From Mesorhizobium loti (GTDB lineage Bacteria; Pseudomonadota; Alphaproteobacteria; Rhizobiales; Rhizobiaceae), in NCBI RefSeq assembly GCF_013170705.1, contig NZ_CP033334.1, positions 248,001 through 312,000 of the forward strand: a stretch of DNA of 64,000 nucleotides. The letters are read 5' to 3'. Each line of letters begins with the position of its first letter. The stretch's first letter is position 1. The notes beneath the pieces are model-generated. The model saw only the letters and a list, made by a program, of their open reading frames with translations. It made no database searches and had not been told where the DNA came from. The position numbers and the translations under genes are program-made. Positions 8,080-30,530 of this stretch are shown piece after piece.

Positions 8080-8196
8080 GCACCACTGAGAGCATTGCAA
8101 CAGAAGCTCTTTTGCCGGGCGTTGGCCCACCGATCGAGAGGGACCACTCAGCCTATTCTCGCTGCCCGCATCGCGCCGGACCCTGAAGGAAGTTTT

Positions 8197-8233
8197 TTGT
8201 TGCATCGCAACATTTTGATGAGGCGTGGCAAAA
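8197..8233. promoter_or_regulatory. TGC-type palindrome operator upstream of the GH16 gene
   Basis: TTGTTGCATCGCAACAT (8197-8213), a near-perfect palindrome, followed by GATGAGGCGTGGCAAAA, the looser second half seen at 6358 and 9226. It lies 130 bp before the GH16 start at 8363. A partial copy (GAGCATTGCAACAGAAG) sits just after the preceding gene at about 8088. Confidence 0.6.
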
Positions 8234-8362
8234 AACCGCCTCACCCGGGGTGCAAGACTCTTCAAGATGGCGCATGCCCAGCGCCACGGCGCCAAGGCCG
8301 CATCGAACGGCCGGATGGTACGTCGCCGCCGACAAGGGCAAGGCGGCCAATGGAGGCTACCG

Positions 8363-9151
8363 ATGAATTACACACGCAGAAAACTCCTGGCGCTTCTGGC
8401 TGCCTCCACGGCGGTACAATCGGTCGTCAGCCAGGCACTGGCCGAGAGCGTCGTGGCGGGAAGCGGGGACGTCGCCCTCGACAAACTTCCCGACTGGTCC
8501 GGTGTCAAACTCCAGCTTTGGAAATACTCCAATCCCTTCGCACCGTCGCAGTGGAGCGAGCCCAAACTCGGAGGCTATGACTGGAAGGCCGCCAACGTCA
8601 AAATCGTCGACGGCGCCCTTCAGCTTACCGTCAGCGAGAAAGCCTCCGCCGAGGTGATCTCGGGCAGCAATTCCGCATCCGCATCGGCGAAATGGGAGGT
8701 GGACGTAACGCTGCCGACGATGAAGCCAGGGCTGATCGCGGCGCCGCTCTGGATCTTCAACGACAAGGCTCATGAGGAGGTCGATTTCGAGATCGTCGGC
8801 ACCAGGGGATTGCAACTCACCGTCTGGGCGAACGTCGACAACCAGCACAAGGCGGTGTGGGTAAAATGGATCCTGGTTGGCGATCTCTCGGGCAAACGAT
8901 ATCGCCTCGGCCTGCAATATGAAGCCGGAAAACGGGTTGTCTTTTCCATCGATGGCAAGGAAGCCGCGGTCGTCACGCCGGCTGACACTGCCGGCGGCGC
9001 CTTTCCGAACAAGCCCATGCAGCCGTTTTTCGACCTGTGGGTAGCAGCAGGTGCCATCATGGACCCGCGCTGGGCCGGCAAATGGGAGCCGATGTCTCCG
9101 TCGGAGAGATTGGTCATGACCGTTCACGGATACAGGCGGACCGACATTTAG
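8363..9151 (+). CDS. Tat-exported GH16 family glycanase
   Basis: Predicted endo-beta-glycanase of 262 residues. The N-terminus carries a twin-arginine signal (NYTRRKLLALLAAS, then SQALA before the mature part), so it should be exported folded to the periplasm or beyond. The GH16 catalytic motif EVDFE is at about residues 139-143, in the sequence HEEVDFEIVG. GH16 enzymes such as ExoK cleave EPS to lower-mass forms. It differs strongly from the second GH16 enzyme at 16509, so the two probably have different cleavage sites. The ATG at 8363 has GGAGG seven bases upstream. Its neighbours are an EPS transferase and a flippase, and it has its own TGC operator. Confidence 0.85.
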   Translation: MNYTRRKLLALLAASTAVQSVVSQALAESVVAGSGDVALDKLPDWSGVKLQLWKYSNPFAPSQWSEPKLGGYDWKAANVKIVDGALQLTVSEKASAEVISGSNSASASAKWEVDVTLPTMKPGLIAAPLWIFNDKAHEEVDFEIVGTRGLQLTVWANVDNQHKAVWVKWILVGDLSGKRYRLGLQYEAGKRVVFSIDGKEAAVVTPADTAGGAFPNKPMQPFFDLWVAAGAIMDPRWAGKWEPMSPSERLVMTVHGYRRTDI

Positions 9152-17937: not shown

Positions 17938-18084
17938 GGCTTAAATTCCTGTCATCGCCGGCTTGCGTGCCGGGCTGCTGGCCAATCCCCGCAACAGGGG
18001 CTGAAAAACTCGCACAGCATTGTCCTACTCCACTGAGGGAGAGACAGACCAATCCGATCGGGGGCCAGTTCGGTTGGTCATCTA

Positions 18085-18102
18085 TTTGCTGCACCGCAAC
18101 AT
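18085..18102. promoter_or_regulatory. TGC-type palindrome operator upstream of the coiled-coil / GH16 / ugd run
   Basis: TTTGCTGCACCGCAACAT, one mismatch from a palindrome and matching the sites at 6358 and 8197. It lies about 150 bp upstream of the start at 17937, in the 282-bp gap after the GT2 gene. The looser second half is not clearly present here. Confidence 0.55.
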
Positions 18103-18219
18103 AGACTGCCATCGTCGGAGCCGTGAGGCAACCACCCAATTCGTAAACTCATAAATCCCGTGGAAATGGTTTGCGCGGCGACGTGTTGTCGTCGGGATAA
18201 AGCGAGCAGTCCCAGTGCC

Positions 18220-19242
18220 TTACCGTTCCTTGCCGGCGCTGGTTCCGGCCATCAGGAAACGCAACGGCGGCACCTGCCTTTGCCCGGAGGCAAGACCAAC
18301 GCGACGAAACAGCGCCTCGAGCTTGTCGGAAGCCACGCCCTGGACGATCGGGACCAGGTTGGATTGGCTTGATAAGGCGTAGGCCGCGGCCGAAGCCAGC
18401 CCGCGCTCGGCCTTCACGTCGAGGAAGTTGCGCAGCCGGTATTTGTCGCGCACGTGCCGCTCGTGCCGCCGCAGCACCGCCTTGGAGCCTTCCGGCAAGC
18501 TGTCGATCGCCAACAGCGCCAGATCCGCATCGGCCAATCGCTTCAGGTCCTGCGTCTTGTGGCGGCCGCTGAGCGAATCGGCGCGCACGATGGCACCGTA
18601 GCCGCAGGAGCGGATGACCTTGAACCGCGCCCCGTGGGCGACCGCGCGGGCGTAAAGTTCGTAATCCTCGCCCAGCCGCAGGCTCTCATCGTAGCGCAAT
18701 CGGTGCCGGTCGAGGAAGGCGCGGCTGATCACGGGTTTCAGGAAGCCAAGCTCGCCTCTTTGCACGCGGCGCCTGGAGATATTGCCTTCGACGAAGCGCT
18801 CGAAGTCGAGGAATTCCGGCTCGGCGGCAAAATCCGGGGCGACGATTTTCGTCGCGTCGCTGGTCGCGTCGTCCCTGATCAACATGATGTTGTCGGCCGC
18901 GAAATCCCAATCAGCGCCGGCAAACAGGTTGCGGAACCGGCCCTCGAGGAAGAAGTCGTCGGCATCCAGAATGCTGATGAACGGCGCCTTCGAGCCGGCG
19001 ATCGCGGCATTGCGGGCGAAGGACGGGCCGCGATTGACGTCGAGGCGCATCACCGCAAGCCGGCCGCTGCCGTCGTCGGCGGAGCGGGCCACCTCGGCGG
19101 TGTTGTCGGTGGAACCGTCGTCGACGACGACGACCTCCGCCACTTCCGGTTCGCGCAACGCGGATGCGATGGCTACCGCGATCGTGCGTGCCGCGTTTTT
19201 GGCCGCGATGATCACGCAGACCTCGGATTTCGTCATCGACAT
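18220..19242 (-). CDS. GT2 glycosyltransferase (ExoO-like), next to the lasso operon
   Basis: Protein of 340 residues with a GT-A fold: SEVCVIIAAKNAARTIAVAI, VVVVDDGSTDNTAEVARSAD, GPSFARNAAIAGSKAPFISI and the DxD-type LDADDFFLEG. The C-terminal half (ELGFLKPVISRAFLDRHRLR, RLGEDYELYARAVAHGARFK) resembles the ExoO-like enzyme at 2208. The ATG at 19242 (MSMTKSEV) is used; reading further upstream would run into the nucleotidyltransferase gene. It follows that gene by 65 bp in the same direction. It may build EPS, or modify the lasso peptide together with its neighbour; the sequence alone does not decide. Confidence 0.85.
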   Translation of the reverse strand: MSMTKSEVCVIIAAKNAARTIAVAIASALREPEVAEVVVVDDGSTDNTAEVARSADDGSGRLAVMRLDVNRGPSFARNAAIAGSKAPFISILDADDFFLEGRFRNLFAGADWDFAADNIMLIRDDATSDATKIVAPDFAAEPEFLDFERFVEGNISRRRVQRGELGFLKPVISRAFLDRHRLRYDESLRLGEDYELYARAVAHGARFKVIRSCGYGAIVRADSLSGRHKTQDLKRLADADLALLAIDSLPEGSKAVLRRHERHVRDKYRLRNFLDVKAERGLASAAAYALSSQSNLVPIVQGVASDKLEALFRRVGLASGQRQVPPLRFLMAGTSAGKER

Positions 19243-19307
19243 GGGTTTTGCCTCTTGCACAGGTTTCGATCTGCCCTCGCCCTGTACGTATTCGATGCCC
19301 ATCGCCA

Positions 19308-20447
19308 TTACGGACTGGCCGGCCGTTCGAAGATGCGGCGGCTGATGTCCGCCGATGCCGCCCAGCCGGCTTCCGCCAGATAGCGGACGGGAGCCCGGCC
19401 GCACAATTCCCACAAAACGGTTCGCCGCTGCGGCCATCGCAGTGACGACAGCCATGGCGCGATGACCATGTTGAGCAGATCCTGGTTGCCGATGCGCGAC
19501 AGGATCGGCTTGGCCCGCTCCGACAAGAGCGTATCGGTGCCGCCCAACAGCACGTCGGCGGCACGCAGGCCGAGCAGCAGCGTATCGTCCAGCCCCTGGC
19601 TCACCGCCGCATCGAGAACACGACGCTGATCGGCCTCGTCGAGACGGTTGGCGCTGGCCCTGATATCGCAGACATAGCCGGCGCAGGGCTCGCGGTTGAA
19701 CAGGGCCTTGGCGACGCTGATGCAGGACAGCATCAGCGTGTCGGCGACCGACGTGAACGGCACTCCGGTGCCGGTGATCTCGACCAGCCGTTTGCGTCGC
19801 AGGAACCCGTCGGCATCGCGTGGACTGGGCGAGCCGGGCTGCTGGAGCCGATAGTGAAGGTCGACCGTGGAGGATTTCGACCCGCTTCCACGAATCATGT
19901 GCTGTTCGCCAAGGAAGCGAACCCACCAGACCGAGCGCGACTTGCCTGATACCTCGTAGCCGATCGAACGCAGCGCGTCGCGCGCCCTCGAGAACCCCGC
20001 AGGCGAAACCAGGATATCGACATCGCCCGAAGGCTTCATGAAATGGTCGTCGTAGAGCAGATGCTGCTGAAACGGGCCCTTCAGGAAGACGAAATCGATT
20101 TGCCTGTCGCGCAGCGCCTGGTGGATCGCCATCGAATCCATGAGGCAGGCGGCGTTCATCGAAACCGTCTGCCGGCGATAGGTGTCGAGCCATCGGAAAA
20201 GCTCAGCCGGCCTGTCGCCCGCGGGCGCGCGCGACAGCGCCTTCAGAACGAAGGTGGCGACTTTGTTCAGCCTGGCGATATCGGCGACGGCGGCAACGGA
20301 AAGGCCCGGCTGCGACAGATCGCCAGCCGAGGCCGCCGCGCCCGAGAAATACAACCGCAGACAGGCCTGCACATAGGCAATCTCGTCGGCGCAGTCGGCT
20401 GCGCGCAGTCGTTCATAGGAACTTTCCGGCAAGGCCATTGAGCGCAT
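19308..20447 (-). CDS. Nucleotidyltransferase-family protein (PF14907-like)
   Basis: Protein of 379 residues. The sequence FVFLKGPFQQHLLYDDHFMK followed by PSGDVDILVSPAGFSRARDA carries the LKG and DxD features (Asp142, Asp144) of the NTP_transf_5 family. Members of this family occur in Firmicute lasso clusters with a kinase; in the pseudomycoidin cluster the homologue was reported to add hexose to the phosphorylated peptide. Here the gene is divergent from a lasso operon that also has a kinase, so a tailoring role is plausible. It is followed by a GT2 gene. The ATG at 20447 has GGAG five bases upstream; an ATG at 20438 is also possible. An EPS role remains an alternative. Confidence 0.72.
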   Translation of the reverse strand: MRSMALPESSYERLRAADCADEIAYVQACLRLYFSGAAASAGDLSQPGLSVAAVADIARLNKVATFVLKALSRAPAGDRPAELFRWLDTYRRQTVSMNAACLMDSMAIHQALRDRQIDFVFLKGPFQQHLLYDDHFMKPSGDVDILVSPAGFSRARDALRSIGYEVSGKSRSVWWVRFLGEQHMIRGSGSKSSTVDLHYRLQQPGSPSPRDADGFLRRKRLVEITGTGVPFTSVADTLMLSCISVAKALFNREPCAGYVCDIRASANRLDEADQRRVLDAAVSQGLDDTLLLGLRAADVLLGGTDTLLSERAKPILSRIGNQDLLNMVIAPWLSSLRWPQRRTVLWELCGRAPVRYLAEAGWAASADISRRIFERPASP

Positions 20448-20534
20448 GGTCTCCAAAACGCGGTTTGCGCGACACGTATGCTGCAAGTGCGAAGCAAAGC
20501 ATCCTCAAAAACCTCGGCTGCGTAAAGTCTTTCC

Positions 20535-20549
20535 TTTCGCAGTGCGAAA
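20535..20549. promoter_or_regulatory. 15-bp palindrome upstream of the nucleotidyltransferase gene
   Basis: TTTCGCAGTGCGAAA is a perfect palindrome about 90 bp upstream of the start at 20447, in the 512-bp divergent gap 20448-20959. It shares the GCAGTGC centre with the TGC-type operators but has different arms. A looser TATGCTGCAAGTGCGAAGC lies at 20477-20495. The AT-rich part (about 20660-20800) holds no gene that I can see. Confidence 0.4.
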
Positions 20550-20862
20550 TTTTGCAACCAGAGCGGTTGCCTAGCCTCCCGAAGACCGTGAAAGATACGA
20601 TTGGAATTGCAACCGCCAGCGGGGCCTTGCGGTCGATCGTCACCGCGGGCCGGCTAATGGAAACATATCCTTATTTAGGGATGCCTAAAATATCATCAAC
20701 CCCACCAACTTTTTATCATAACAAAATCAATGGTTTAAAGACTTGTCATCGCAGGAGGCGGATCATTCGAGCTTCAGTCAAAAAGAGGCGAAATTTTGAG
20801 CAGCCCACGCACACATGGTGACGCCCGCAACCCTTAATTGATTAACCAGAGGTAAATCAGGC

Positions 20863-20906
20863 TTGACTCATAAATGTTGCCATGCAGCTATTGCAACGCA
20901 GCATGA
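20863..20906 (+). promoter_or_regulatory. Promoter and TGC-type operator of the lasso-peptide operon
   Basis: TTGACT (20863-20868) is a good -35 element; CTATTG at 20888-20893 is a possible -10 at a long spacing of 19. Overlapping it are TGC boxes TGTTGCCATGCAGC (20875-20888) and TTGCAACGCAGCA (20892-20904), which resemble the operators of the EPS genes. The precursor ATG is at 20960. The promoter call is tentative; the box similarity is clear to the eye. Confidence 0.45.
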
Positions 20907-20959
20907 AAGTGCTGACGGCACTCGACAGGCCGTTTCCAGTCCTCATTTTGGAGAGTAAA

Positions 20960-21112
20960 ATGGAACAGAATGTTGAAAAGCACGAGTACGAAACGCCAAG
21001 CCTGACGGTACATGGTTCCATTGAAACCATCACCCAGGGCGGTGGTGGCAGCACGGCAACCGACGCGTCGTTTCCCGCGCACACCCCAATCGGCGACCTG
21101 ACGTTCTCCTGA
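20960..21112 (+). CDS. Lasso-peptide precursor (50 residues)
   Basis: Leader of 26 residues, MEQNVEKHEYETPSLTVHGS then IETITQ, with the Y-x-x-P-x-L...G motif read by split RRE proteins and Thr at -2. The core is 24 residues: ring segment GGGGSTATD, then tail ASFPAHTPIGDLTFS. Gly1 and Asp9 would form a nine-residue macrolactam. Candidate plugs are Phe12, His15 and Phe23. By hand, the threaded core (linear minus one water) has a monoisotopic mass of about 2245.03 Da, and 2325.0 with one phosphate. The core ends in Ser, the site that HPr-kinase-like lasso kinases phosphorylate. The ATG at 20960 is used (GGAGAG upstream) rather than an in-frame ATG at 20882, which lies in the promoter. First gene of the operon. 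Confidence 0.88.
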   Translation: MEQNVEKHEYETPSLTVHGSIETITQGGGGSTATDASFPAHTPIGDLTFS

Positions 21113-21121
21113 GACCAACCT

Positions 21122-21191
21122 GATCCCGGAGGAGTGACGTTGGGCTTCCGGGATCCAAGACAATAAATGGAGCCGGGGATGAAAATCCCCG
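21122..21191 (+). terminator. Two intercistronic hairpins between precursor and B1 genes
   Basis: GATCCCGGA (21122-21130) pairs with TCCGGGATC (21147-21155). Then CGGGGAT (21174-21180) pairs with ATCCCCG (21185-21191) around a GAAA loop, followed by the pyrimidine-rich ACTTTCCCTTTT. They lie in the 135-bp gap after the precursor. They could stabilise the precursor mRNA or act as a leaky terminator, giving more precursor than enzyme. Confidence 0.55.
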
Positions 21192-21247
21192 ACTTTCCCT
21201 TTTGAACTGACGACGCGTGGACCGTGTGTTGCAAACGAGGTTTTGGG

Positions 21248-21547
21248 ATGAACTGGAACCCATCTGAACACGATTGCGTAAGTGCCACCGGGGATGCCGT
21301 GGCTTGCGAATTTGGCGAAGGCCTCGCGCTTCTCAATCTCAAATCCAATATCTACTACAGCCTCAACGGCGTCGGCGCTTTTATCTGGGAGTTGATCCAG
21401 GAGCCGAAGTCGATCGCCGATATCCGCGGCGCCGTGCTTGCGCGCTACAATGTCGACGCCGAGCGCTGCAAGGCCGACGTCGACGCATTGCTGCAAGGCC
21501 TGACCGAAAACGGACTTGCGAGGCTGCAGCATGAGGCACTCGTCTAG
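21248..21547 (+). CDS. Lasso peptide B1: PqqD-like RiPP recognition element
   Basis: Protein of 99 residues of the PqqD fold (three-strand winged helix). Sequence: EGLALLNLKSNIYYSLNGVG, AFIWELIQEPKSIADIRGAV and VDALLQGLTENGLARL. In split lasso systems this protein binds the YxxP leader motif and presents the precursor to the B2 peptidase. The ATG at 21248 has a GAGG ribosome site; it is the second gene of the operon. It overlaps the B2 start by 17 bp. Cytoplasmic. Confidence 0.9.
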   Translation: MNWNPSEHDCVSATGDAVACEFGEGLALLNLKSNIYYSLNGVGAFIWELIQEPKSIADIRGAVLARYNVDAERCKADVDALLQGLTENGLARLQHEALV

Positions 21548-22040
21548 GCAGGCTCCGCAAAAGGCCATGATCCCACGGCAAAGACCTGCGACGGAACAAA
21601 GACCCAGGCGGACGCCCCGCCGGCGTAGTTTGGCCAGGGTTCTGTCGCTGAGCGGCTCCGAGGCCCTTTTTCTCTGCCACTGCCTGCTGGTTGTCGCCGC
21701 CATCCGGCTGGGGCTGACCTTGTTCTCCTACAACCGTGTTCGTGGCATGGTGACCCGGCTCAACGCGCGCCAGTGCGCCAGTATGGGCGAATTGCGGCTC
21801 GTCGCCTGGGGCGTCGCCGCAGCTGCACGGTTCGTGCCGCGTGCCACTTGCCTTACCCAGGCACTCTCGGGTCAATACATTCTCGCACGCCAGGGCAATG
21901 CCTCCAGCATCCGCATCGGCGTCGAACGCGGCACGGGCGAGCAATTGAAGGCGCATGCCTGGCTGGTCAGCGACAACCATGTCGTGCTTGGCGGCTCCGT
22001 CGATGGCTTCGCCCATCTGGTGGACCACGGCAGCCGATGA
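21531..22040 (+). CDS. Lasso peptide B2: transglutaminase-like leader peptidase
   Basis: Cysteine protease of 169 residues that removes the leader. Catalytic features: Cys107 in RFVPRATCLTQALSGQYILA and His142 in LKAHAWLVSDNHVVLGG, with Asp148 the likely third residue. The first 40 residues are Arg-rich (RQRPATEQRPRRTPRRRSLA), an unusual basic tail; a shorter start at 21567 would still keep most of it. GAGG precedes the ATG at 21531. The gene overlaps B1 by 17 bp and the cyclase gene by 4 (ATGA). Confidence 0.9.
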   Translation: MRHSSRQAPQKAMIPRQRPATEQRPRRTPRRRSLARVLSLSGSEALFLCHCLLVVAAIRLGLTLFSYNRVRGMVTRLNARQCASMGELRLVAWGVAAAARFVPRATCLTQALSGQYILARQGNASSIRIGVERGTGEQLKAHAWLVSDNHVVLGGSVDGFAHLVDHGSR

Positions 22041-24001
22041 GCGGCGTGGCCGGAATCCTGCTGCGACAGGGACACGCGATTGCGGTCCGAGGACACACGA
22101 TCGCGGGCCGGGAATTAGCGCCCGAGGACGCCGCGACCGATATCCAGCAGATGCTGGCACGCATGCGCCACCGCGGGCCGGACGGAAACTCGTGGTGGCT
22201 GGACGGCGGCATCGCGCTTGGCCACGCCTGGCTCAACACCACGGATGAGGCCGGTCCCGGCCCGCTCACCATGGCCGGCGGCAAGCTCGCCATCACCGCC
22301 GATTGCCGGCTGGACAATCGCGACGAGCTGATGGCGAGGCTGGGTGTGCGCGACAGATCGGTCGCTGACGCAGTACTGCTGATGCGGGCCTACCTGCGCT
22401 GGGGCGAATCCTGCCCCGTCCACCTGCAGGGCGATTTCGCCTTTGCCATCTGGGATGCCGAGCGGCGGCTGCTGTTTTGCGTGCGCGACCATTTCGGGGT
22501 CAAGCCATTCTACTACCACGCCGCGGACGGGCGTTTTGCCTTTGCCTCCGAGATCGGGCCGATGCTTGGCCTCGACGGGGTCGATGCGCGCATCAGCGAG
22601 CACCGCATTTCGGGATTCCTGGCTGGACTTCCCGACGACCCGCAATCCACCCCCTACAGCGATATCTTCAGCCTGCCGGCGCGTCACAGCCTCACCGTCA
22701 CCGCGCAACATGTGATGCTGCGCCGATACTGGCAGATCGAGCCATCGACGCGGCCGCTGCGATCGGATGCGGCGGAGGAATTCGGCCATCTGTTCGCGCA
22801 ATCGGTGCGCAACCGTATGCGCGGCAGTCAGTCGACCGGCGCGATGCTGAGCGGCGGCCTCGACTCCTCCTCGATCGCCTGTGTCGCCGGCCTGCAGAAT
22901 GCCGCCGAGCGGAAACCCAGGTTGCCGACCTTCTCGCTGATTTTCGAGAAGGGCTCGCCAATGGATGAGCGGGCGTTCATCGATGCCGTGCTTGACCAGC
23001 AGAAAACCGATCCGACGCTGATCCCTGTTGGCAATTATGCACCCTTCGCCGAGTTCGAGCGGGTGCTGGAGGAGCAGGAAGGCACCTTCCTGGCGCCGGG
23101 CTTGACGCTCACCCGCAGCATATACAGGACCGCGGGAGCCAAGGGCGTGAAAGTGCTGCTCGACGGCCATGGCGGCGACGAGGTCGTTTCACAGGGCCAT
23201 GGCCATCTGCACGAGCTTGCCAATGGCCGCAGGTGGCTGGACCTTTGGCGCGAGGTTCGCAGTGCCTCCAACACCTATGGCGACAGCACGCTCGGCCTCT
23301 ATTTCCAGTTCCTGACCCTCTATGGGCCGGCATGGCGGATCGCCAGGCTGAGACAGCTGGCGAACCGGGCGCTGAACAGGATACGCAAGCCCGCGCGGAT
23401 ACAGCGCGGCCGCAGTTGGCGCGACCTGATCAATCCGGACCTGGCCAGGCGCACCGAGATCGTCGACCGTTTCCACCGGGCCGGATACATGCCGCCGGGC
23501 GTCCAGGCCAGCGACGCCTTGAGCCATCGCTGGATCTTGTTGAACGGCTATGTGCCCCACTCTTTCGAGGTGCTCGACAAGGCGGCCGCCAATTTCGGCA
23601 TCGAGCCACGGTATCCCTTCTGGGACAAGCCGCTGGTCGAATTCTGCCTGGCGCTGCCGGGCGAGGAGAAACTCAGCCACGGCTTTGGCCGCCATGTGTT
23701 GCGCAGGGCGATGGAGGGCATCCTGCCGCCGGCGGTGCAGTGGCGGCGCGACAAGATCGATTTCACCGCCAATCTGGTCAATGGCATGGTGCGCAACCAT
23801 CGCGACCTGCTGGAGCAATTGCTGGTCTCGGACGCCGGGCGCATCGCGCCCTATGTCAACCTGCCACAGGTGAGCGCCGCATATGGTCGACTGATGCGCC
23901 AGCCGGATCGGGCGGCCCCTCTCGATGTCCAGTATGTCTGGCGTTCGGCCTCGCTGTCGCTCTGGCTGCGGCAGGTCCAGCACAGCGGGAGCCCCGCATG
24001 A
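22037..24001 (+). CDS. Lasso peptide C: asparagine-synthetase-like macrolactam synthetase
   Basis: Protein of 654 residues that adenylates the ring Asp side chain and joins it to Gly1. The ATP pyrophosphatase loop SGGLDSSS is at residues 272-279 (AMLSGGLDSSSIACVAG), and LLDGHGGDEVVSQGHGH follows. The N-terminal glutaminase-like domain is present (RHRGPDGNSWWLDGGIALGH), but it begins MSGVAGIL, so the catalytic Cys2 of true asparagine synthetases is Ser; ammonia release is not needed for lasso closure. Its start overlaps B2 (ATGA) and its end overlaps the kinase gene (ATGA), a tightly coupled set. Cytoplasmic. Confidence 0.92.
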   Translation: MSGVAGILLRQGHAIAVRGHTIAGRELAPEDAATDIQQMLARMRHRGPDGNSWWLDGGIALGHAWLNTTDEAGPGPLTMAGGKLAITADCRLDNRDELMARLGVRDRSVADAVLLMRAYLRWGESCPVHLQGDFAFAIWDAERRLLFCVRDHFGVKPFYYHAADGRFAFASEIGPMLGLDGVDARISEHRISGFLAGLPDDPQSTPYSDIFSLPARHSLTVTAQHVMLRRYWQIEPSTRPLRSDAAEEFGHLFAQSVRNRMRGSQSTGAMLSGGLDSSSIACVAGLQNAAERKPRLPTFSLIFEKGSPMDERAFIDAVLDQQKTDPTLIPVGNYAPFAEFERVLEEQEGTFLAPGLTLTRSIYRTAGAKGVKVLLDGHGGDEVVSQGHGHLHELANGRRWLDLWREVRSASNTYGDSTLGLYFQFLTLYGPAWRIARLRQLANRALNRIRKPARIQRGRSWRDLINPDLARRTEIVDRFHRAGYMPPGVQASDALSHRWILLNGYVPHSFEVLDKAAANFGIEPRYPFWDKPLVEFCLALPGEEKLSHGFGRHVLRRAMEGILPPAVQWRRDKIDFTANLVNGMVRNHRDLLEQLLVSDAGRIAPYVNLPQVSAAYGRLMRQPDRAAPLDVQYVWRSASLSLWLRQVQHSGSPA

Positions 24002-25014
24002 TGCCCCGTAACCAGCCGTTCGCCACCTGCCTTGGTGAGCATCCTCCCCATGACGAGATGATGAGGGAGCGACGTTACTACCGGGCCTATGGCCTGATCG
24101 TCGCATCCGACGTGGCGTTGCCCGAACTGCAGCCGGCGGAACCGGCGGCGCCGGATATCCTGATCGCCATCGGCATGATCGACATGCCGAAGCCTTCGGC
24201 CGAGACCGCGACGATCTTCCGCTTCGAGCCGGACCGGCAATATCTGGCGTGGCATGCCGTCGGCGCCTTCCTGATCAGCGGTTCCAACCGCATCGATATC
24301 GAGCCGGCGCCCGGCGTCGACGACGCGCTGCTTGCCTTCCCGCTGCTCGGGCCGGTGATGGCATTGTTGCTGCACCAGCGCGGCCTGCTCGTCCTGCATG
24401 CCAGCGCCATCGCGGTGGCTGGGAGGGGCGCCATCTTCATGGGCGACAAGGGCGCCGGCAAGTCGACGACGGCAAGCGCACTGATCCGCGCCGGGCATGA
24501 TTTGCTTACCGATGATGTCGTGGCTATGGACCTGGCCAACCCGGTCGCGCCGATGATCGTTGCGGGCTTTCCCCAGATCAAGCTTGCCGCGGATGCCGCC
24601 GCCGCGATTTCGCTTGGCCAGGCGGAAGTGCGGCCGCAAGTGCATCCGGCGATCGGTAAGATGCAACATCGCCTGCACGGCGCCTTCTCCGGCGGCTTGG
24701 TGCCCGCGACCAGGATCTATGTCCTCGAGCGCGGCCAAAAGGCCGGGATCATGCCCTTGCCCGGTATCGCCGCCCTGCCGGCCATCATCAAATTCTCCTA
24801 TGTGACGCGGTTCGGCCGCGCGGCGCTGTCCGGCGATTTCGCGGCGCTGCATTTTCGCCAATGTTCAGCAATCGCTAACCATGTCGGCGTGTTCCGGCTG
24901 GAAGTTCCGACCGGCCTCGACAGGATTGGCGAGGCGGTGGAGCTGATCGAAGCCGACCTTTCGGTTGGCAATTTAGCCGCCGGGGAGCCGGCGGCCGGCC
25001 ATCGGCGGCGGTGA
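23998..25014 (+). CDS. Lasso peptide K: HPr-kinase-like serine kinase
   Basis: Protein of 338 residues similar to the C-terminal domain of HPr kinase. Walker A loop MGDKGAGKSTTAS at about 148-160; HASAIAVAGRGAIF just before it; LLTDDVVAMDL as the acidic motif. In lasso clusters, kinases of this type phosphorylate the C-terminal Ser of the precursor, as known for paeninodin-type systems; the precursor here ends in Ser. The N-terminal 120 residues (ERRYYRAYGLIVASDVALPE) are typical of this group. No phosphotransferase-system genes are nearby, so an HPr role is unlikely. Overlaps the cyclase by 4 bp. Confidence 0.85.
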   Translation: MMPRNQPFATCLGEHPPHDEMMRERRYYRAYGLIVASDVALPELQPAEPAAPDILIAIGMIDMPKPSAETATIFRFEPDRQYLAWHAVGAFLISGSNRIDIEPAPGVDDALLAFPLLGPVMALLLHQRGLLVLHASAIAVAGRGAIFMGDKGAGKSTTASALIRAGHDLLTDDVVAMDLANPVAPMIVAGFPQIKLAADAAAAISLGQAEVRPQVHPAIGKMQHRLHGAFSGGLVPATRIYVLERGQKAGIMPLPGIAALPAIIKFSYVTRFGRAALSGDFAALHFRQCSAIANHVGVFRLEVPTGLDRIGEAVELIEADLSVGNLAAGEPAAGHRRR

Positions 25015-25022
25015 GGGCAATC

Positions 25023-26867
25023 ATGTCGAAGTCCTCGGTCCTTCGCCTGTCGCTGTTTCGTGATGTCGCCGCGTTCGGGGCCGTTATTGCCCAGATCGGC
25101 GGGCGGCGGACCTGGACGGCGCTTCTGTTCCTCATCCTCGGCAGCCTGACGGAAGGCATCTCGATCCTGCTGCTTGTGCCGCTGCTGCACCTGGTCGGGC
25201 GCGCCGACCAGGATTTCGCGGTGCGGTTGCCGAACAACGATTTCGTGCGCTGGCTGGTGCCGGACGGAACGCTGCAGCTGACGACGGTGCTGTGCGCGCT
25301 GGTTGGACTCGTTGCCGTGCAGGCAGCATTCAACCGCTTCAAGTCGGTCTACATGGCCAGGCTTCTGTTCGATTTCATCAACCGCCTGCGCATGAACCTG
25401 TTCGAGAGCATCGGCAAGGCGCGCTGGGGCGTGTTCTCGCGCATGCGCAGCTCAGACCTCGACCATGCCCTGACCGGCGACATCGATCGCGTCCAGGGCG
25501 CCGCCTTCTCGCTGCTCATGCTGGTGCAGATCGCGGTGCTTTTGGTGGGCTATCTCGTGATCTCCATGTTCATTTCGCCGGTCATGACGGCGTTTGCGAT
25601 CGGCATCGGCATCGTGATGTTCATAGCGCTGCAGCCGTTTCGCTCGCGCGCCACAGCCTTCGGACGTGTCCTGACCAGCAATCGCCAGGATCAGTACCGG
25701 ACAGTCTCGGAATTCCTGGGCGGCATCAAGGTGGCCAAGAGCCTGAATGTCGAGGCCAGCTACTTCGCGCAGCTGCAGGCAACCCTGGAAAGGATGAAGG
25801 CCGACAACATCGACTATGTGCGCAACAGCTCGATCGGTACCGCCGTGTTCCAGGTGACGAGTGTCGTGGGCCTCAGCCTGTTCATCTACGTGGCGCTGGT
25901 CCGCTTCAACCTGTCGCTGGCCGAGATTGTCGTGCTGCTCCTGGTTTTCATGCGTATCGCGCCACGCTTCATGGATATGCAGACGCAGGCCCAGCAGGTG
26001 CTGATCAACCTGCCCGCCTATATGGCCATGCGCAGCCTGCAGGCACGCTTCGACGCCGAGCAAGAGCCGGGTCATGCCGACTTCGACGATGCCGAAAAAC
26101 TGTCGCTCGACACCGGGCTGAACATTCGCGGCGTCTCGTTTGGCTACGATGACGGCGCCGGCAAGGCGGTGGTGAGCGACATCACCTTCGGGCTTCCGGC
26201 CGGCAAGGTCACCGCCCTGATCGGGCCTTCGGGATCAGGCAAGAGCACGATCGCCGACATGTTGCTTGGCCTGCTCGAGCCGACCACCGGCAAGATCCTG
26301 GTCGACGGTGTCGAGATCAATGCCGGCAATCGCCGGCGCTGGCGCGATCAGGTGGCCTATGTGCCGCAGGACGTGTTCCTGCTGCATGACACGATCGCGG
26401 CGAACTTGCGGCTTGCCGCGCCACAGGCCAGCGACGACGCGTTATGGACCGCGCTGCGCGCCGCACATGCGGGCGAGTTCGTCGAACAGCTCGCCCAGCG
26501 GCTCGAGACCGTGGTCGGCGACCGTGGCGCGCGCCTCTCGGGTGGCGAGCGCCAGCGCATTGCACTGGCGCGCGCGCTGCTGCGCAAGCCGTCGCTGCTC
26601 ATCCTCGACGAGGCAACCAGCGCGCTCGATTGGCAGAACCAGGCGCTGATCGCCAAATCGATCGATGGATTGCGCGGCGCAATGACCATCCTGACCATAG
26701 CGCACCGGCCATCGATGATCGCCTTCGCCGATTGGGTGGTGGCAATGGAAGACGGCCGTGTGGTGGAGGTCGGACAGTATCAGCGGCTGAAGGCGAAGCC
26801 GGCGAGCCGACTGTCCAGGATGCTGTCGGGGGAACAATCGGAAACCGAACCCGCCAATGTGGCCTGA
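25023..26867 (+). CDS. Lasso peptide D: ABC exporter (TMD-NBD fusion)
   Basis: Half-transporter of 614 residues: an N-terminal domain with about six membrane segments (WTALLFLILGSLTEGISILL, LLMLVQIAVLLVGYLVISMF and others) and a C-terminal ATPase with Walker A LIGPSGSGKST, signature LSGGERQRIALARALL and Walker B LLILDEATSALDW. A homodimer would export the mature lasso peptide and give self-immunity. It is the last gene of the operon; a GTG at 25011 is in frame, but the ATG at 25023 has GAGGG upstream. It meets the leftward exoX-like gene end-on. No peptidase domain is fused. Confidence 0.9.
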   Translation: MSKSSVLRLSLFRDVAAFGAVIAQIGGRRTWTALLFLILGSLTEGISILLLVPLLHLVGRADQDFAVRLPNNDFVRWLVPDGTLQLTTVLCALVGLVAVQAAFNRFKSVYMARLLFDFINRLRMNLFESIGKARWGVFSRMRSSDLDHALTGDIDRVQGAAFSLLMLVQIAVLLVGYLVISMFISPVMTAFAIGIGIVMFIALQPFRSRATAFGRVLTSNRQDQYRTVSEFLGGIKVAKSLNVEASYFAQLQATLERMKADNIDYVRNSSIGTAVFQVTSVVGLSLFIYVALVRFNLSLAEIVVLLLVFMRIAPRFMDMQTQAQQVLINLPAYMAMRSLQARFDAEQEPGHADFDDAEKLSLDTGLNIRGVSFGYDDGAGKAVVSDITFGLPAGKVTALIGPSGSGKSTIADMLLGLLEPTTGKILVDGVEINAGNRRRWRDQVAYVPQDVFLLHDTIAANLRLAAPQASDDALWTALRAAHAGEFVEQLAQRLETVVGDRGARLSGGERQRIALARALLRKPSLLILDEATSALDWQNQALIAKSIDGLRGAMTILTIAHRPSMIAFADWVVAMEDGRVVEVGQYQRLKAKPASRLSRMLSGEQSETEPANVA

Positions 26868-26915
26868 GGCTCGATCGAGGTGTCGAGAATTCAGGTCAGG
26901 CCGGCGTTACCCGCC

Positions 26916-27191
26916 CTAATGCAGGCTGCGCCGGGCGCTGCCCAGCTTCTCGCCTTCGGGCACGTCGGGCGAGCTCAGCTTTCTTTCGGCTTCGCGTAGC
27001 CTGTCCGCAGGCGTCGGCGCGCTCCTGGCGATCATGGCATAGACAAGGATGAAATAGCCGGCCTGGATAACCGCCGCGCAGATGATGAGGCGCAGCAGCG
27101 TGGTGCCCAGCGAGGCGCCGCCAAGCCAGGACCAGGCGACGACGATCGCAAGAGCGAAAAGCATCCCAACAATGAATTTTGGAAGCGACAT
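26916..27191 (-). CDS. exoX: ExoX/SyrA-like small membrane regulator of EPS synthesis
   Basis: Protein of 91 residues with two membrane segments: FIVGMLFALAIVVAWSWLGG (about 5-24) and LLRLIICAAVIQAGYFILVY (about 31-50), then a charged cytoplasmic tail (ADRLREAERKLSSPDVPEGE). This is the layout of ExoX/SyrA proteins, short inner-membrane factors that lower EPS production, in part by acting on ExoY. In S. meliloti exoX precedes exoY-exoF-exoQ; here it is also next to exoY but in the opposite orientation. The ATG at 27191 gives the family-like start MSLPKFIVGM. Confidence 0.72.
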   Translation of the reverse strand: MSLPKFIVGMLFALAIVVAWSWLGGASLGTTLLRLIICAAVIQAGYFILVYAMIARSAPTPADRLREAERKLSSPDVPEGEKLGSARRSLH

Positions 27192-27720
27192 TACCCAACA
27201 GCCCATAAACCGGCTCGGGTCATATCCAATAATTGCCCCACCCGAGCGCCGTCCCTTGTCATGCGGGCTTGTTAAAATCACCCGCTCTCGGCCGGTTGCT
27301 TCCGACCTTTTAACCTGTCGCCACTGTGACAGGTATAATTTGCAATTCTATTAAGGCGAGCAGGAGGCGGCAAGGGCAACCGCACATATTTTTGAACGAA
27401 CTTGCGCCTTCGACTCCTTCATGCTGCAACGCACACGGCGGCATTTCACTCAACCTGCAGCCGACGAGCTTTTTCAGTACAATTCACAATATTAAGTAGT
27501 ATTTTATGTTAATAGTCGTGAGGGTCGCACCTTTCTAAAGCACTAATATGCGCCGCGTTGAGCGAACGAGTACGCCCTGCCCAAAAATCGCCCCAAAAAG
27601 GTCCGTATTTTTTTTCATTTGCCCATTTATTGTCACAAATGTGCTAAATATCCCGAAAAATGTGCATTGCTAGCTTATTATTTAGTCAATTCATGACGTG
27701 ACTATTTCAATGTGCCGGGA
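27192..27720. other. AT-rich gap upstream of exoY
   Basis: Most of the 602-bp gap 27192-27793 between exoX- and exoY-like genes. From about 27470 to 27715 it is strongly AT-rich, with a run of eight T and stretches such as TTATTATTTAGTCAATTCAT. I see no gene or RNA gene. AT-rich DNA before exoY fits binding by MucR/Ros-type zinc-finger regulators, but no defined box can be named. A lone TGC box fragment (CATGCTGCAACGCACA) is at about 27419-27434. Confidence 0.4.
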
Positions 27721-27727
27721 AATTGTG

Positions 27728-27765
27728 TGTTGCGCTGCAACATTTTTTTGATATCGTGTGGTGAA
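27728..27765. promoter_or_regulatory. TGC-type operator upstream of exoY
   Basis: TGTTGCGCTGCAACA (27728-27742), one mismatch from a palindrome, followed by TTTTTTTGATATCGTGTGG, which loosely follows the second half of the blocks at 6358 and 9226. It ends shortly before the exoY ATG at 27794, so bound protein could block transcription or translation initiation. Confidence 0.55.
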
Positions 27766-27793
27766 CCATTCGTTCAACGCATGGAGTTTCCGC

Positions 27794-28471
27794 ATGAGGG
27801 ACATTGCCAAGTCGGCCACGGCGGGCTTTTCGCAGGCTGACACCGATTTTCCGCCGCCGATCGGCGGCCTCATCAAGCGCAGCTTCGATATCGCCGGTTC
27901 GCTGGTCGGCCTGATCGCTCTCAGCCCACTGTTCGTGATGATTGCGCTGCTCGTCAAGTTTTCCGACGGTGGATCGATTTTCTATGGCCATCGGCGAATC
28001 GGGCGCGGCGGACGGATCTTTCCGTGCCTGAAATTCCGCACCATGGTCCCGGACGGCGACAAGGTGCTGGCCGCCTACCTGGCCACCAATCCGGATGCCA
28101 ATGCGGAGTGGATAGCCACCCGCAAACTGAAGAACGATCCGCGCGTCACCCGTGTCGGAGCGGTGTTGCGGAAGCTCAGCCTTGATGAACTGCCGCAGAT
28201 CATCAACATCCTGCAGGGCGACATGAGCCTTGTAGGACCTCGCCCCGTGGTGCGTGACGAGTTGGAAATCTATGGCAGTGCCGCGGTATACTATCTGAAA
28301 TCCCGGCCCGGCCTGACCGGCCTGTGGCAGGTCAGCGGCCGCAACGACGTCTCCTATGACAGCCGCGTCGCCTTCGACCGCCACTATGTCGAGAACTGGT
28401 CGCTGTTCGGCGACGTGCGCATCATCATCAAAACCGTGCCGGCCGTCTGGATGTCACGCGGCTCTTACTGA
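27794..28471 (+). CDS. exoY: Undecaprenyl-phosphate sugar-1-phosphate transferase (ExoY)
   Basis: Initiating enzyme of EPS repeat synthesis, moving galactose-1-phosphate (in the succinoglycan scheme) to the lipid carrier. The 225 residues match S. meliloti ExoY (about 226). The N-terminal membrane segment [20 protein letters not shown] is followed by the bacterial sugar transferase motif: [29 protein letters not shown] and [12 protein letters not shown]. The ATG at 27794 has GGAG eight bases upstream and is preferred to a GTG at 27758 that lies in the operator. It is followed by exoF. Confidence 0.93.
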
Positions 28472-28543
28472 CCGGCCGCCGGCACAAGGCATCCGGCGGC
28501 AAGCTCATCGGGCGATGGGGCTAAAACGGATCGGAACGTTCAG

Positions 28544-29815
28544 TTGAAAACAGACATGTTCGAAGCCTTTGGCAGCGGCCGCTTTTCCGGCCGCTATCGG
28601 CTCATGGCCACATGCCTTGCGGCGTCGCTCGCTTTTCTTCCCCGGATCGCGGCAGCAGAGGAATACCATCTCGGCTCGCAGGACAAGCTCACCATCCGCA
28701 TCGCCGAATGGCAGACCGTGGAAGGCACGTTCCGCGACTGGTCGGCGGTGAACGGCGAATACACGGTCGGACCGGGCGGAACGCTGTCGGTGCCTTTCGT
28801 CGGCGAGTTGCCGGCGGCGGGCAAGACCACGGCGGAAGTGGCGGCGGCGATCGGCGAGGCGCTGCAGCACAAGCTCGCCCTGTCGGACAAGCCCGAAGCC
28901 TCGGTCGAAATGGCGCAGTTCCGGCCATTCTACATCTCGGGCGAAGTGCAGAATCCCGGCCAATTCCCCTATGTGCCCGATCTGACGGTGCTGAAAGCGC
29001 TCAGCGTCGCCGGCGGCATCAGGCGCAACGCCGACTACGGTCCCCAGCTCGGCAAGGACCTGGTCACCGCCAAGGGCAATTTCGATATTTCCGACGACCA
29101 GCGCGTGCGGCTGCTCGTCAGGCGCGCCCGCATCGATGCGGATCTGGCCGGCAAGACGAGCTTCGAAGCGCCGAAGGAGGTCGAGGGCGACCCAAGGCTG
29201 CCGACCATCGTCAATGACGAGATGACGATCCTGACCGCCGACCAGAAGGCGCTGAAGCTGAAGCTCGAGGCGCTCGACGATCTCAAGGGTGTCCTGCAGG
29301 CCGAAATCGAATCGCTGCAGAAGAAGATCGTCAACCAGCAGAAGCAGGTCGACCTGGCGCAGCAGCAGCTCGCCAGCATCGGTCCGCTGGCGCAGAAGGG
29401 CCTGGTCGCCAATGCGCGGCTTCTGGATTCGCAGCAGTCCGTTACCGACCTGCAGGGCAAGATCCTCGACTACGAGACGGCCATCCTCACCGCCAAGCAG
29501 GCGATCAGCAAGGCGACGCAGGACGCCATCGATGCCCAGAACACGTTGAGCTCGAGCCTCGCCGCCGACCGGCAGCAGACCGAAGCCGACCTGAACGAGG
29601 CCGCGTTGAAGGTGAATATGCAGAGAGGCCTGATAGCCCAGGCCAGCGATCCCGCGACGACGGCCGCCATCACCAACGACCAGCAGCCTACCCTGCTCTA
29701 TTCGCTGGTGCGCAATGTCGACGGCAAAACCAGCGAAATCGCCGCCAAGGAAGACACGCTGGTGCTGCCCGGCGATGTAATCAAGGTCAAGCTGGCGCCA
29801 CTGGCCAGCCAATAG
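28544..29815 (+). CDS. exoF: ExoF-like polysaccharide export protein
   Basis: Periplasmic/outer-membrane-linked export protein of 423 residues. Signal peptide with cleavage around ASLAFLPRIAAA, then the polysaccharide export domain YHLGSQDKLTIRIAEWQTVE and FRPFYISGEVQNPGQFPYVP. A long coiled-coil region follows (about 210-340, e.g. QKKIVNQQKQVDLAQQQLAS), and the C-terminus ends VLPGDVIKVKLAPL. This matches ExoF (about 421 residues). The TTG at 28544 has GGAA upstream; the ATG at 28556 is an alternative. It is 72 bp after exoY, in one transcription unit. Confidence 0.9.
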   Translation: MKTDMFEAFGSGRFSGRYRLMATCLAASLAFLPRIAAAEEYHLGSQDKLTIRIAEWQTVEGTFRDWSAVNGEYTVGPGGTLSVPFVGELPAAGKTTAEVAAAIGEALQHKLALSDKPEASVEMAQFRPFYISGEVQNPGQFPYVPDLTVLKALSVAGGIRRNADYGPQLGKDLVTAKGNFDISDDQRVRLLVRRARIDADLAGKTSFEAPKEVEGDPRLPTIVNDEMTILTADQKALKLKLEALDDLKGVLQAEIESLQKKIVNQQKQVDLAQQQLASIGPLAQKGLVANARLLDSQQSVTDLQGKILDYETAILTAKQAISKATQDAIDAQNTLSSSLAADRQQTEADLNEAALKVNMQRGLIAQASDPATTAAITNDQQPTLLYSLVRNVDGKTSEIAAKEDTLVLPGDVIKVKLAPLASQ

Positions 29816-29972
29816 GATTTCGACAAAGAGCATCGAGCGGTTGCAGGCGTTTTGAAAGAAGACTGTTCTCGCTGGGCGCGCAAACCTGCTGTCCATCGAA
29901 GACCAACATTACCCTCGCTGACAATCCTGCCCGCGTGACGATACCGTCGCGGGCGAACGAAGAGATGGCGTC

Positions 29973-30530
29973 GTGAACGTCTACCGCATTCGAAGATATG
30001 TGAAGGGTTCGATCTTCACGCTCGTCTGGAAGATGAGAGGCATAAAAATCGCCGATCGGATTTCCGTGCTGGGAACGCCGCCTCACATCGCCGGAAAAGG
30101 CCGAATAGAATTTGGCTCGCTTGTTTCATTTCGGGGCTTCGGATCGCGTTCCTGGTTTCACGTGTCGAGCAAAGGCAAGCTGTCTATCGGTTCGAGATCG
30201 TTCATCAACAGTGGCGTCATGATTGATGCCGCGCTCCGTGTAAGCATCGGGAAAAACTGCCTTATTGGCGATTGCGTCGTCATCCAGGATTCCAACTATC
30301 ACGAGATCGACGAAGGCTCGGGCGTCAAGACCAAAGCCGTTCTCATCGGCGATAATGTCTGGATCGGTCGAAATTCCATCATTCTGCCCGGTGTCGAAGT
30401 TGGCGACCACAGCGTCATTGGCGCCGGATCGGTCGTCACCAAGAGCGTTCCCCCGCGAAGCCTGGCGGCAGGAAATCCTGCCCGGATCTTGCGCGAGGTC
30501 GTGGCATCCCCGGATTACATCCGTACCTGA
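29973..30530 (+). CDS. Hexapeptide-repeat acyltransferase
   Basis: Left-handed beta-helix acyltransferase of 185 residues: repeated I-G-x-x steps in ISIGKN/LIGDCVVI and VLIGDNVWIGRNSIILPGVE, VGDHSVIGAGSVVTKSV, ending SLAAGNPARILREV. The active His is probably in SNYHEIDEG. Such enzymes put acetyl or succinyl groups on sugars. It sits where S. meliloti has exoQ/exoZ, but it belongs to a different acyltransferase fold from ExoZ. The GTG at 29973 is used (AGAGATGG upstream). It lies 157 bp after exoF. Confidence 0.82.
   Translation: MNVYRIRRYVKGSIFTLVWKMRGIKIADRISVLGTPPHIAGKGRIEFGSLVSFRGFGSRSWFHVSSKGKLSIGSRSFINSGVMIDAALRVSIGKNCLIGDCVVIQDSNYHEIDEGSGVKTKAVLIGDNVWIGRNSIILPGVEVGDHSVIGAGSVVTKSVPPRSLAAGNPARILREVVASPDYIRT

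What the first reader, a model, noticed from the sequence alone, without database searches (positions are those of the whole stretch)
20960..26867. Complete six-gene lasso-peptide operon with a core I cannot match to a named lasso peptide
Directly seen: a 50-residue precursor, then PqqD-like B1, transglutaminase-like B2, asparagine-synthetase-like C, HPr-kinase-like K and ABC exporter D, coupled by overlaps. Family knowledge: the leader motif Y-x-x-P-x-L...G, Thr at -2, Gly1 and an acidic residue at ring position 7-9 are the class II signature; here Asp is at position 9. Inference: ring GGGGSTATD, tail ASFPAHTPIGDLTFS, threaded mass about 2245.03 Da. Four glycines at the start of the ring and a polar tail are unusual.
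Basis: partly seen in the sequence, partly recalled or inferred. Interest (0 to 1): 0.9.

Follow-up and report, generated by a model that had tools for sequence, protein, structure and literature searches.

The report
Phospho-lasso peptide operon in Mesorhizobium
A Mesorhizobium genome carries a complete gene set for a knot-shaped (lasso) peptide that is probably tagged with phosphate, and the set is kept across most of the genus inside a locus for surface sugar polymers, so its unknown role could be tested there.

Summary
The operon is real, at the stated coordinates, and is a class II lasso cluster: precursor A, B1, B2, cyclase C, HPr-kinase-like K, exporter D. Curated models already cover precursor and cyclase, and 11 of 39 close homologues already bear a lasso name, so the kind is known. 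No named core I saw has these letters; paeninodin shares the plan (nine-residue ring ending in Asp, C-terminal Ser, kinase). Four starting glycines are not unprecedented (felipeptin A2).

The six-gene boundary is too small. A divergent nucleotidyltransferase (N, 19308-20486, minus) occurs in the same 103 of 146 Mesorhizobium genomes as A and C, plus one genome whose contig ends before A would be reached. In 25 genomes without the operon, the flanking glycosyltransferase and sugar transferase lie 1.2-1.5 kb apart, not 8.1-8.7 kb, and 11 of 25 keep a remnant of D. So a seven-gene module sits in an exopolysaccharide locus and was lost as a unit.

Most likely K phosphorylates the C-terminal Ser, N decorates that phosphate (as in pseudomycoidin), B1/B2/C form the lasso, D exports it. 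Selection is purifying; function is unknown.

The parts
20960..21112 (+). A: lasso precursor, 50 aa; leader 1-26 with YxxPxL..G and T at -2; predicted core GGGGSTATDASFPAHTPIGDLTFS
   Evidence: (NF033528, NF033521 over cut-off)
21122..21155 (+). first hairpin between A and B1
   Evidence: 6 consensus pairs, 4 with a two-sided change
21169..21198 (+). second, stronger hairpin between A and B1, terminator- or processing-like
   Evidence: 12 consensus pairs, 4 with a two-sided change
21224..21547 (+). B1: PqqD-like RiPP recognition element; true start probably ATG 21248
   Evidence: PF05402; TbiB1, TfuB1 and other lasso RREs; 8 of 78 relatives have a stop before residue 9 of the longer reading
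21516..22040 (+). B2: transglutaminase-like leader peptidase (start may be ATG 21531 or later)
   Evidence: NF033537, PF13471; C112, H147, D170 in 79 of 79
22037..24001 (+). C: asparagine-synthetase-like lasso cyclase; Ser, not Cys, at residue 2
   Evidence: SGGLDSS in 79 of 79
24001..25014 (+). K: HPr-kinase-like peptide kinase
   Evidence: H133, K154, D171, D172 in 79 of 79
25011..26867 (+). D: ABC exporter, MsbA-like
19308..20486 (-). N: NTP_transf_5 nucleotidyltransferase, divergent from A, same module; true start uncertain, at or after residue 17 (20438)
   Evidence: PF14907 112.2 bits, cut-off 31.2; with C in 103 of 103 genomes; 15 of 76 relatives have a stop at residues 16-20 of the longer reading
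18220..19278 (-). GT2 glycosyltransferase: left edge of the surrounding polysaccharide locus, not part of the module
   Evidence: kept when the module is absent
27758..28471 (+). ST: sugar transferase (Bac_transf, WbaP-like): right edge of the locus, not part of the module
   Evidence: kept when the module is absent
28544..29815 (+). PE: polysaccharide export protein (Poly_export, SLBB)

Best explanation
A seven-gene biosynthetic module for a class II, C-terminally phosphorylated lasso peptide, embedded in an exopolysaccharide locus. B1 binds the leader; K phosphorylates the C-terminal Ser24 of the precursor; N (NTP_transf_5) probably adds a hexose or nucleotide to that phosphate; B2 cuts after Gln(-1); C activates Asp9 and closes a nine-residue Gly1-Asp9 ring round the tail; D exports the product. 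Shown: gene order, families, conserved catalytic residues, invariant Ser24 and D9 in the operon panel, and joint presence/absence of N with A and C. Inferred: every chemical step, ring size, threading, the substrate of N, and any link to the polysaccharide.
For: Curated models over cut-off for A, B2 and C, family hits for B1, K, D, N. T(-2), G1, D9, F12, P13, T16, P17, T22, F23, S24 in 75 of 75 close precursors; C-terminal Ser in 78 of 78 relatives. K residues H133/K154/D171/D172 in 79 of 79, spaced 21, 17 and 1 as in BsfK H148/K169/D186/D187, whose alanine variants lost solubility or activity to varying degrees (PMC10368454 passages). B2 C112/H147/D170 in 79 of 79; N residues D155, D157, D209 in at least 97% of 77 rows. 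No stop inside A or C in 78 relatives; stops in B1, B2, K, D, N matches lie only near the ends. A and C are in the same 103 of 146 genomes, N in those plus G271, whose 4181-base contig ends 137 bases upstream of N. Absence looks like deletion of the whole module: GT2 and ST are 1153-1538 bp apart in 25 of 25 negatives counted, 8092-8692 in 75 positives; a D remnant (E below 0.01) in 11 of 25; no match to A, B1, B2, C or K at E 0.01 or better in any. Presence/absence needs at least 5 changes on a GT2+ST+PE tree. The same order occurs at 40-64% identity in two genomes of another family of the same order (L129, L130).
Against: No product, mass or expression datum exists. Sulfitobacter L003 has a K-like gene with the four residues, but its precursor ends LTTP, not Ser. 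In Paracoccus L004 N and GT2 lie some 3-6 kb from A in another arrangement. Phosphorylation could be elsewhere: BsfK acts on ring Ser3, and T16 and T22 are as invariant here as S24. K only just passes its Pfam cut-off. In 2 of 103 genomes (G200, G227) C is matched in two pieces, and in G278 N is. The co-occurrence test ignores phylogeny; independent events are few.
Confidence: 0.8

Rival explanations
1. A plain kinase-type lasso operon (A-B1-B2-C-K-D): the nucleotidyltransferase is a polysaccharide gene that merely travels with it, and the product is phosphorylated but not further decorated.
For: N is on the opposite strand and beside a GT2. This genome has three NTP_transf_5 genes. Proteobacterial clusters with a kinase (SyanK) are described without mention of N in the passages I saw.
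Against: N is present in 103 of 103 operon genomes and 1 of 43 others, while GT2 and ST stay behind. N genes are part of other kinase-type lasso clusters: psmN and bsfN.
Confidence: 0.15
2. A decaying operon that no longer makes a product in most strains.
For: Absent in 43 of 146 genomes; C matched in two pieces in 2 of 103; deletion remnants.
Against: Leader pN/pS 0.029 and whole precursor 0.133 in 75 precursors; catalytic residues kept in 79 of 79; no stop inside A or C in 78 relatives.
Confidence: 0.05
3. A secreted antibacterial weapon (bacteriocin-like lasso peptide) under diversifying selection.
For: The ring varies more than the leader (pN/pS 0.386 against 0.029); an exporter is present; some lasso peptides are antibacterial (recalled).
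Against: No region has pN/pS near 1; T-F-S ends 75 of 75 precursors; the operon is syntenic and genus-wide rather than patchy. I made no search for immunity genes.
Confidence: 0.15

Closest known systems
Paeninodin (Paenibacillus dendritiformis; PadeK type)
   Same: Class II, nine-residue ring ending in Asp (AGPGTSTPD), C-terminal Ser, HPr-kinase-like K; paeninodins often co-localise with capsule loci in Bacilli (PMC13381572 sections 6 and 12; core from table passage of PMC12427821).
   Different: Paeninodin-like precursors nearly always carry WxxP (PMC13381572 passage), here YxxP (YETP). No paeninodin model is among the 3 NCBIfam hits of A. The paper calls paeninodins restricted to Bacillota, with at least 102 gains and losses in Bacilli; here the operon is genus-wide and syntenic in an alphaproteobacterium.
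Pseudomycoidin (Bacillus pseudomycoides; psm cluster with psmK and psmN)
   Same: Kinase plus nucleotidyltransferase; PsmK phosphorylates the C-terminal Ser, PsmN is needed for one or two hexoses on it (review passages PMC9266682).
   Different: Core AGPGKRLVDQVFEDEDEQGALHHS shares only the plan. Here N is divergent from A. I did not compare the N sequences with PsmN.
Bsf cluster (Bradymonas sediminis)
   Same: Same seven gene kinds A, B1, B2, C, D, K, N; YxxPxL leader; same K residues and spacing (PMC10368454 passages).
   Different: Bsf has Ile at -2, phosphorylates ring Ser3 and ends in Asp; here Thr at -2 and C-terminal Ser. The bsf cluster is described as bordered by an FG-GAP gene and ribosomal proteins.
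NCBIfam NF033528 (lasso_cyano) precursors with NF033535 cyclases
   Same: A and C pass both curated cut-offs; a Nostoc plasmid precursor aligns over 92% at 47.8% identity.
   Different: Host is an alphaproteobacterium; I made no tree of the family.
Linear polyphosphorylated peptides (LPP, Bacilli)
   Same: RRE, HprK-like kinase, NTP transferase, MsbA-like exporter, capsule loci (PMC13381572).
   Different: LPP clusters lack a cyclase and use a SipW-like signal peptidase; here C and B2 are present.

Membership tests
Lasso peptide biosynthetic cluster (class II) | Precursor with YxxPxL..G leader and Thr at -2 | tested here: met
Lasso peptide biosynthetic cluster (class II) | Core starting with a small residue and Asp/Glu at position 7-9; no Cys in the core | tested here: met
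   G1 and D9 in 75 of 75 close precursors; no Cys in any core of the window, L017-L094, L003, L004
Lasso peptide biosynthetic cluster (class II) | RRE protein B1, peptidase B2 with Cys-His-Asp, cyclase C | tested here: met
   (triad identity recalled from the family, residues counted here)
Lasso peptide biosynthetic cluster (class II) | Threaded, isopeptide-closed product | not testable with these tools
   needs MS/MS or NMR
Phosphorylated lasso peptides (kinase type) | HPr-kinase-like K with His-Lys-Asp-Asp | tested here: met
   79 of 79; motif from PMC9266682 and PMC10368454 passages
Phosphorylated lasso peptides (kinase type) | C-terminal Ser in the precursor (not so in Bsf) | tested here: met
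   78 of 78 relatives and the window; plasmid relative L003 ends in Pro
Phosphorylated lasso peptides (kinase type) | Phosphate on the peptide | not testable with these tools
   needs MS
Paeninodin family (Bacillota clade) | WxxP leader motif | tested here: not met
   YETP in the window; Y10 and P13 invariant in alignment A1 of 40
Paeninodin family (Bacillota clade) | B1 in the paeninodin clade of the RRE tree | not tested
   no RRE tree built
Pseudomycoidin/Bsf type (kinase plus nucleotidyltransferase) | Nucleotidyltransferase gene belonging to the cluster | tested here: met
   PF14907; 103 of 103 with, 1 of 43 without
Pseudomycoidin/Bsf type (kinase plus nucleotidyltransferase) | Hexose on the phosphate (pseudomycoidin) | not testable with these tools
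   needs MS
LPP (linear polyphosphorylated peptides) | No macrolactam cyclase | tested here: not met
   C is present and passes NF033535

The most novel reading that the evidence does not exclude
The Mesorhizobium lasso peptide is not a weapon but a working part of the cell's surface polysaccharide: its phosphoserine is linked by the nucleotidyltransferase to a sugar of the neighbouring exopolysaccharide pathway, so that a knotted peptide caps, anchors or regulates the polymer.
Probability: 0.1. Interest if true: 0.88.

Novelty: new member of a known kind. Interest (0 to 1): 0.45.

Why it matters
The biological role of paeninodins and LPPs is stated to be unknown, and a link to biofilm is a stated but untested idea (PMC13381572, section 12). 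In Bacilli the clusters are patchy. Here is an alphaproteobacterial lineage in which a comparable module is inherited in place through most of a genus known for nitrogen-fixing plant symbionts (recalled), with relatives that have lost the module while the flanking polysaccharide genes remain. That gives a natural comparison and a clean deletion target for asking what such a peptide does to surface polysaccharide, biofilm or nodulation.

Tried and rejected
Class-wide search with the cyclase model NF033535 matched 245 of 385 genomes but only 1 over cut-off (the window's own); the rest I take to be asparagine-synthetase relatives, so I used the B2 model instead. Of 53 regions fetched round B2 hits, only L129 and L130 share the full arrangement, and L129 is probably the same record as L093 (equal contig length). 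I therefore do not claim that lasso operons in general sit in polysaccharide loci. My regular expression for other precursors in those regions gave many ORFs that look like chance and was not used. Rfam: 0 matches in 18000-30000 at gathering scores. The promoter scan gave one weak site near A, overlapping its start. PDB sequence search: 0 relatives of N at E 1 or better. A precursor for the second, cyclase-less cassette was sought by conservation and leader motif and not found. Metanodin (PMC12670498 passages) was looked at and is not close.
Full report
What is there. Curated models recognise the precursor (NF033528, NF033521), B2 (NF033537) and C (NF033535) over cut-off; Pfam recognises B1 (PF05402), K (PF07475, just over cut-off) and D; N at 19308-20486 on the minus strand is NTP_transf_5 (PF14907, 112.2 bits). 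Solved relatives of B1 include the lasso RREs TbiB1 and TfuB1; the 4 solved matches of K are HPr kinases; N has no solved match at E 1 or better.

Who has it. The named precursor homologues are Mesorhizobium or partial records, and 11 of the 39 found carry a name with 'lasso'. The window lies in a 6.87-Mb single-contig genome. In 146 genomes of the same genus, A is found in 106; three of these (G189, G236, G292) are weak matches elsewhere, leaving 103. C is found in the same 103. N is found in those 103 plus G271, a 79%-complete genome whose 4181-base contig ends 137 bases upstream of the N match. GT2 is found in 138 and the sugar transferase ST in 140, with cut-offs of 1e-60. In a drawn sample of 151 genomes of the family, A occurred in 3, in 2 of 109 genera.

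A discrete module. In 75 positives with both flanks (window and L017-L093) GT2 and ST are 8092-8692 bp apart; in the 25 negatives that keep an ST at 85% identity or more they are 1153-1538 bp apart. The other 18 of 43 negatives lack such an ST; I fetched three of them (L203-L205) and did not count them here. In 11 of the 25 a remnant of the 3' part of D is found at E below 0.01 (9 below 0.001), strongest in L190 (79% over 77 residues, E 3e-32); L187 keeps a remnant of the start of N (57% over 43 residues, E 2e-7), L190 a doubtful one (E 0.01); nothing like A, B1, B2, C or K was found at E 0.01 in any of the 25; 13 of 25 show no remnant of D or N. On a FastTree tree of GT2+ST+PE (103 rows: 76 with, 27 without) presence/absence needs at least 5 changes; 15 negatives form one group, while L187 and L197 lie among positives. 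So the module is best read as old in much of the genus and deleted several times, N going with the operon each time. Fisher's test (5e-36) ignores phylogeny; the tree gives the fairer weight.

Precursor evolution. In 75 precursors the leader has pN/pS 0.029, the ring 0.386, the middle 0.209, the last six residues 0.167. These rows are Mesorhizobium plus three records named only Rhizobiales, Hyphomicrobiales or bacterium. G1, D9, F12, P13, A14, T16, P17, T22, F23 and S24 never vary there; ring positions 2, 3, 5 and 8 vary most. In the wider set position 1 can also be Ala or His. This is purifying selection with a looser ring. One metagenomic homologue (P0038) has a quite different ring segment without Asp9; I did not pursue it.

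Mechanism. K keeps four residues pointed out as important in BsfK, with identical spacing. The reviews, seen in passages, state that PadeK phosphorylates the C-terminal Ser of the precursor rather than the threaded peptide, that ThcoK and SyanK polyphosphorylate it, that this Ser is extremely conserved where a homologous kinase gene is present, and that PsmN is needed for one or two hexoses on it (PMC9266682; PMC8498205). S24 is the C-terminus in 78 of 78 relatives, so S24 is the best candidate, although T16 and T22 are equally invariant, BsfK uses a ring Ser, and Sulfitobacter L003, with a K-like gene, ends in Pro. Ring closure G1-D9 follows from T(-2) and from Asp9 being the only acidic residue at 7-9. 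C has Ser instead of Cys at residue 2, so it probably lacks glutaminase activity (inference from asparagine synthetase B, recalled).

Context. GT2, ST, a polysaccharide export protein and, across the left edge of the window, a Wzc-like exopolysaccharide transport protein (TIGR01005) mark a polysaccharide locus. The whole arrangement recurs at 40-64% identity in two genomes of another family of the same order (L129, L130), without a GT2 match in M. denitrificans L094, and rearranged in a Paracoccus plasmid L004. A 2026 paper reports that paeninodin-like clusters with HprK-like kinases and NTP transferases co-localise with capsule loci of Bacilli, together with cyclase-less LPP clusters, that both are restricted to Bacillota and patchy, and that their role is unknown (PMC13381572: sections 6 and 12 read, passages of the rest seen). 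The present locus shows a like association in Alphaproteobacteria, inherited in place. It is not a paeninodin by the leader test (YxxP).

A second cassette. About 30 kb upstream in the same genome, beyond the Wzc-like gene, lies a B1-B2-K set with another NTP_transf_5 gene beside it and no cyclase or precursor found. Similar sets occur in 7 of 13 fetched order-level regions outside the genus. Of 20 operon-positive genomes searched 16 have a second B2, 15 of them on the same contig as the first; of 25 negatives, 4 have a B2 about 17-22 kb from the GT2-ST site, 4 others have one elsewhere, and 17 have none. So the cassette is itself often absent where the operon is, which may be shared ancestry. 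It looks like an alphaproteobacterial counterpart of LPP with B2 in place of the signal peptidase; this is inference.

Literature. Searches pairing lasso peptide or lassopeptide with Mesorhizobium, rhizobia, exopolysaccharide and related words showed, in the rows listed (25 of 71, 25 of 184), no title or abstract start about this operon; the rows hold no mention of lasso peptides and say nothing. I saw passages of one paper that names both (PMC9332814), which concerns a cyanobacterium. The library lacks most subscription journals, and earlier genome-mining catalogues (recalled) very probably contain these clusters.

Verdict. An ordinary kind of cluster with an unusually informative distribution. 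Interest 0.45.

Noticed in passing
L013:6075-8992 (own genome, about 7-10 kb before the window): B1-B2-HPrK-like set plus NTP_transf_5, without cyclase or visible precursor, in the same polysaccharide region; similar sets in L126, L131, L132, L133, L135, L136, L137. Possible counterpart of linear polyphosphorylated peptides.
   Followed up: partly
window 21110-21223: Two hairpins between A and B1; 18 consensus pairs, 8 with at least one two-sided change, in 20 chosen sequences of 79; up to 6 of 20 sequences break a pair. Perhaps raises A expression over the enzymes.
   Followed up: partly
window 20820-20959: Region upstream of A is strongly conserved between species, including a TTGACTCA stretch and GCAGC/GCTGC palindromic stretches (9 Mesorhizobium sequences shown); regulator unknown.
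   Followed up: no
G189:C63, G236:C1:4.81 Mb, G292:C49: Three genomes without this operon have a weak precursor match about 2.2 kb from a B2 gene elsewhere, so probably a different lasso cluster.
   Followed up: no
P0038: Metagenomic precursor homologue with normal leader and LTFS tail but an unrelated hydrophobic ring segment lacking Asp9; frameshift pair, error or real variant.
   Followed up: no
L003 (Sulfitobacter indolifex plasmid pDSM14862_d): Lasso-like precursor with no listed gene, ending LTTP, beside a rearranged cluster with a K-like gene; an exception to the C-terminal Ser rule.
   Followed up: no
L012 (G000:C1:448763-449353): Third NTP_transf_5 gene of the genome, inside a 629-aa open frame; not examined.
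   Followed up: no
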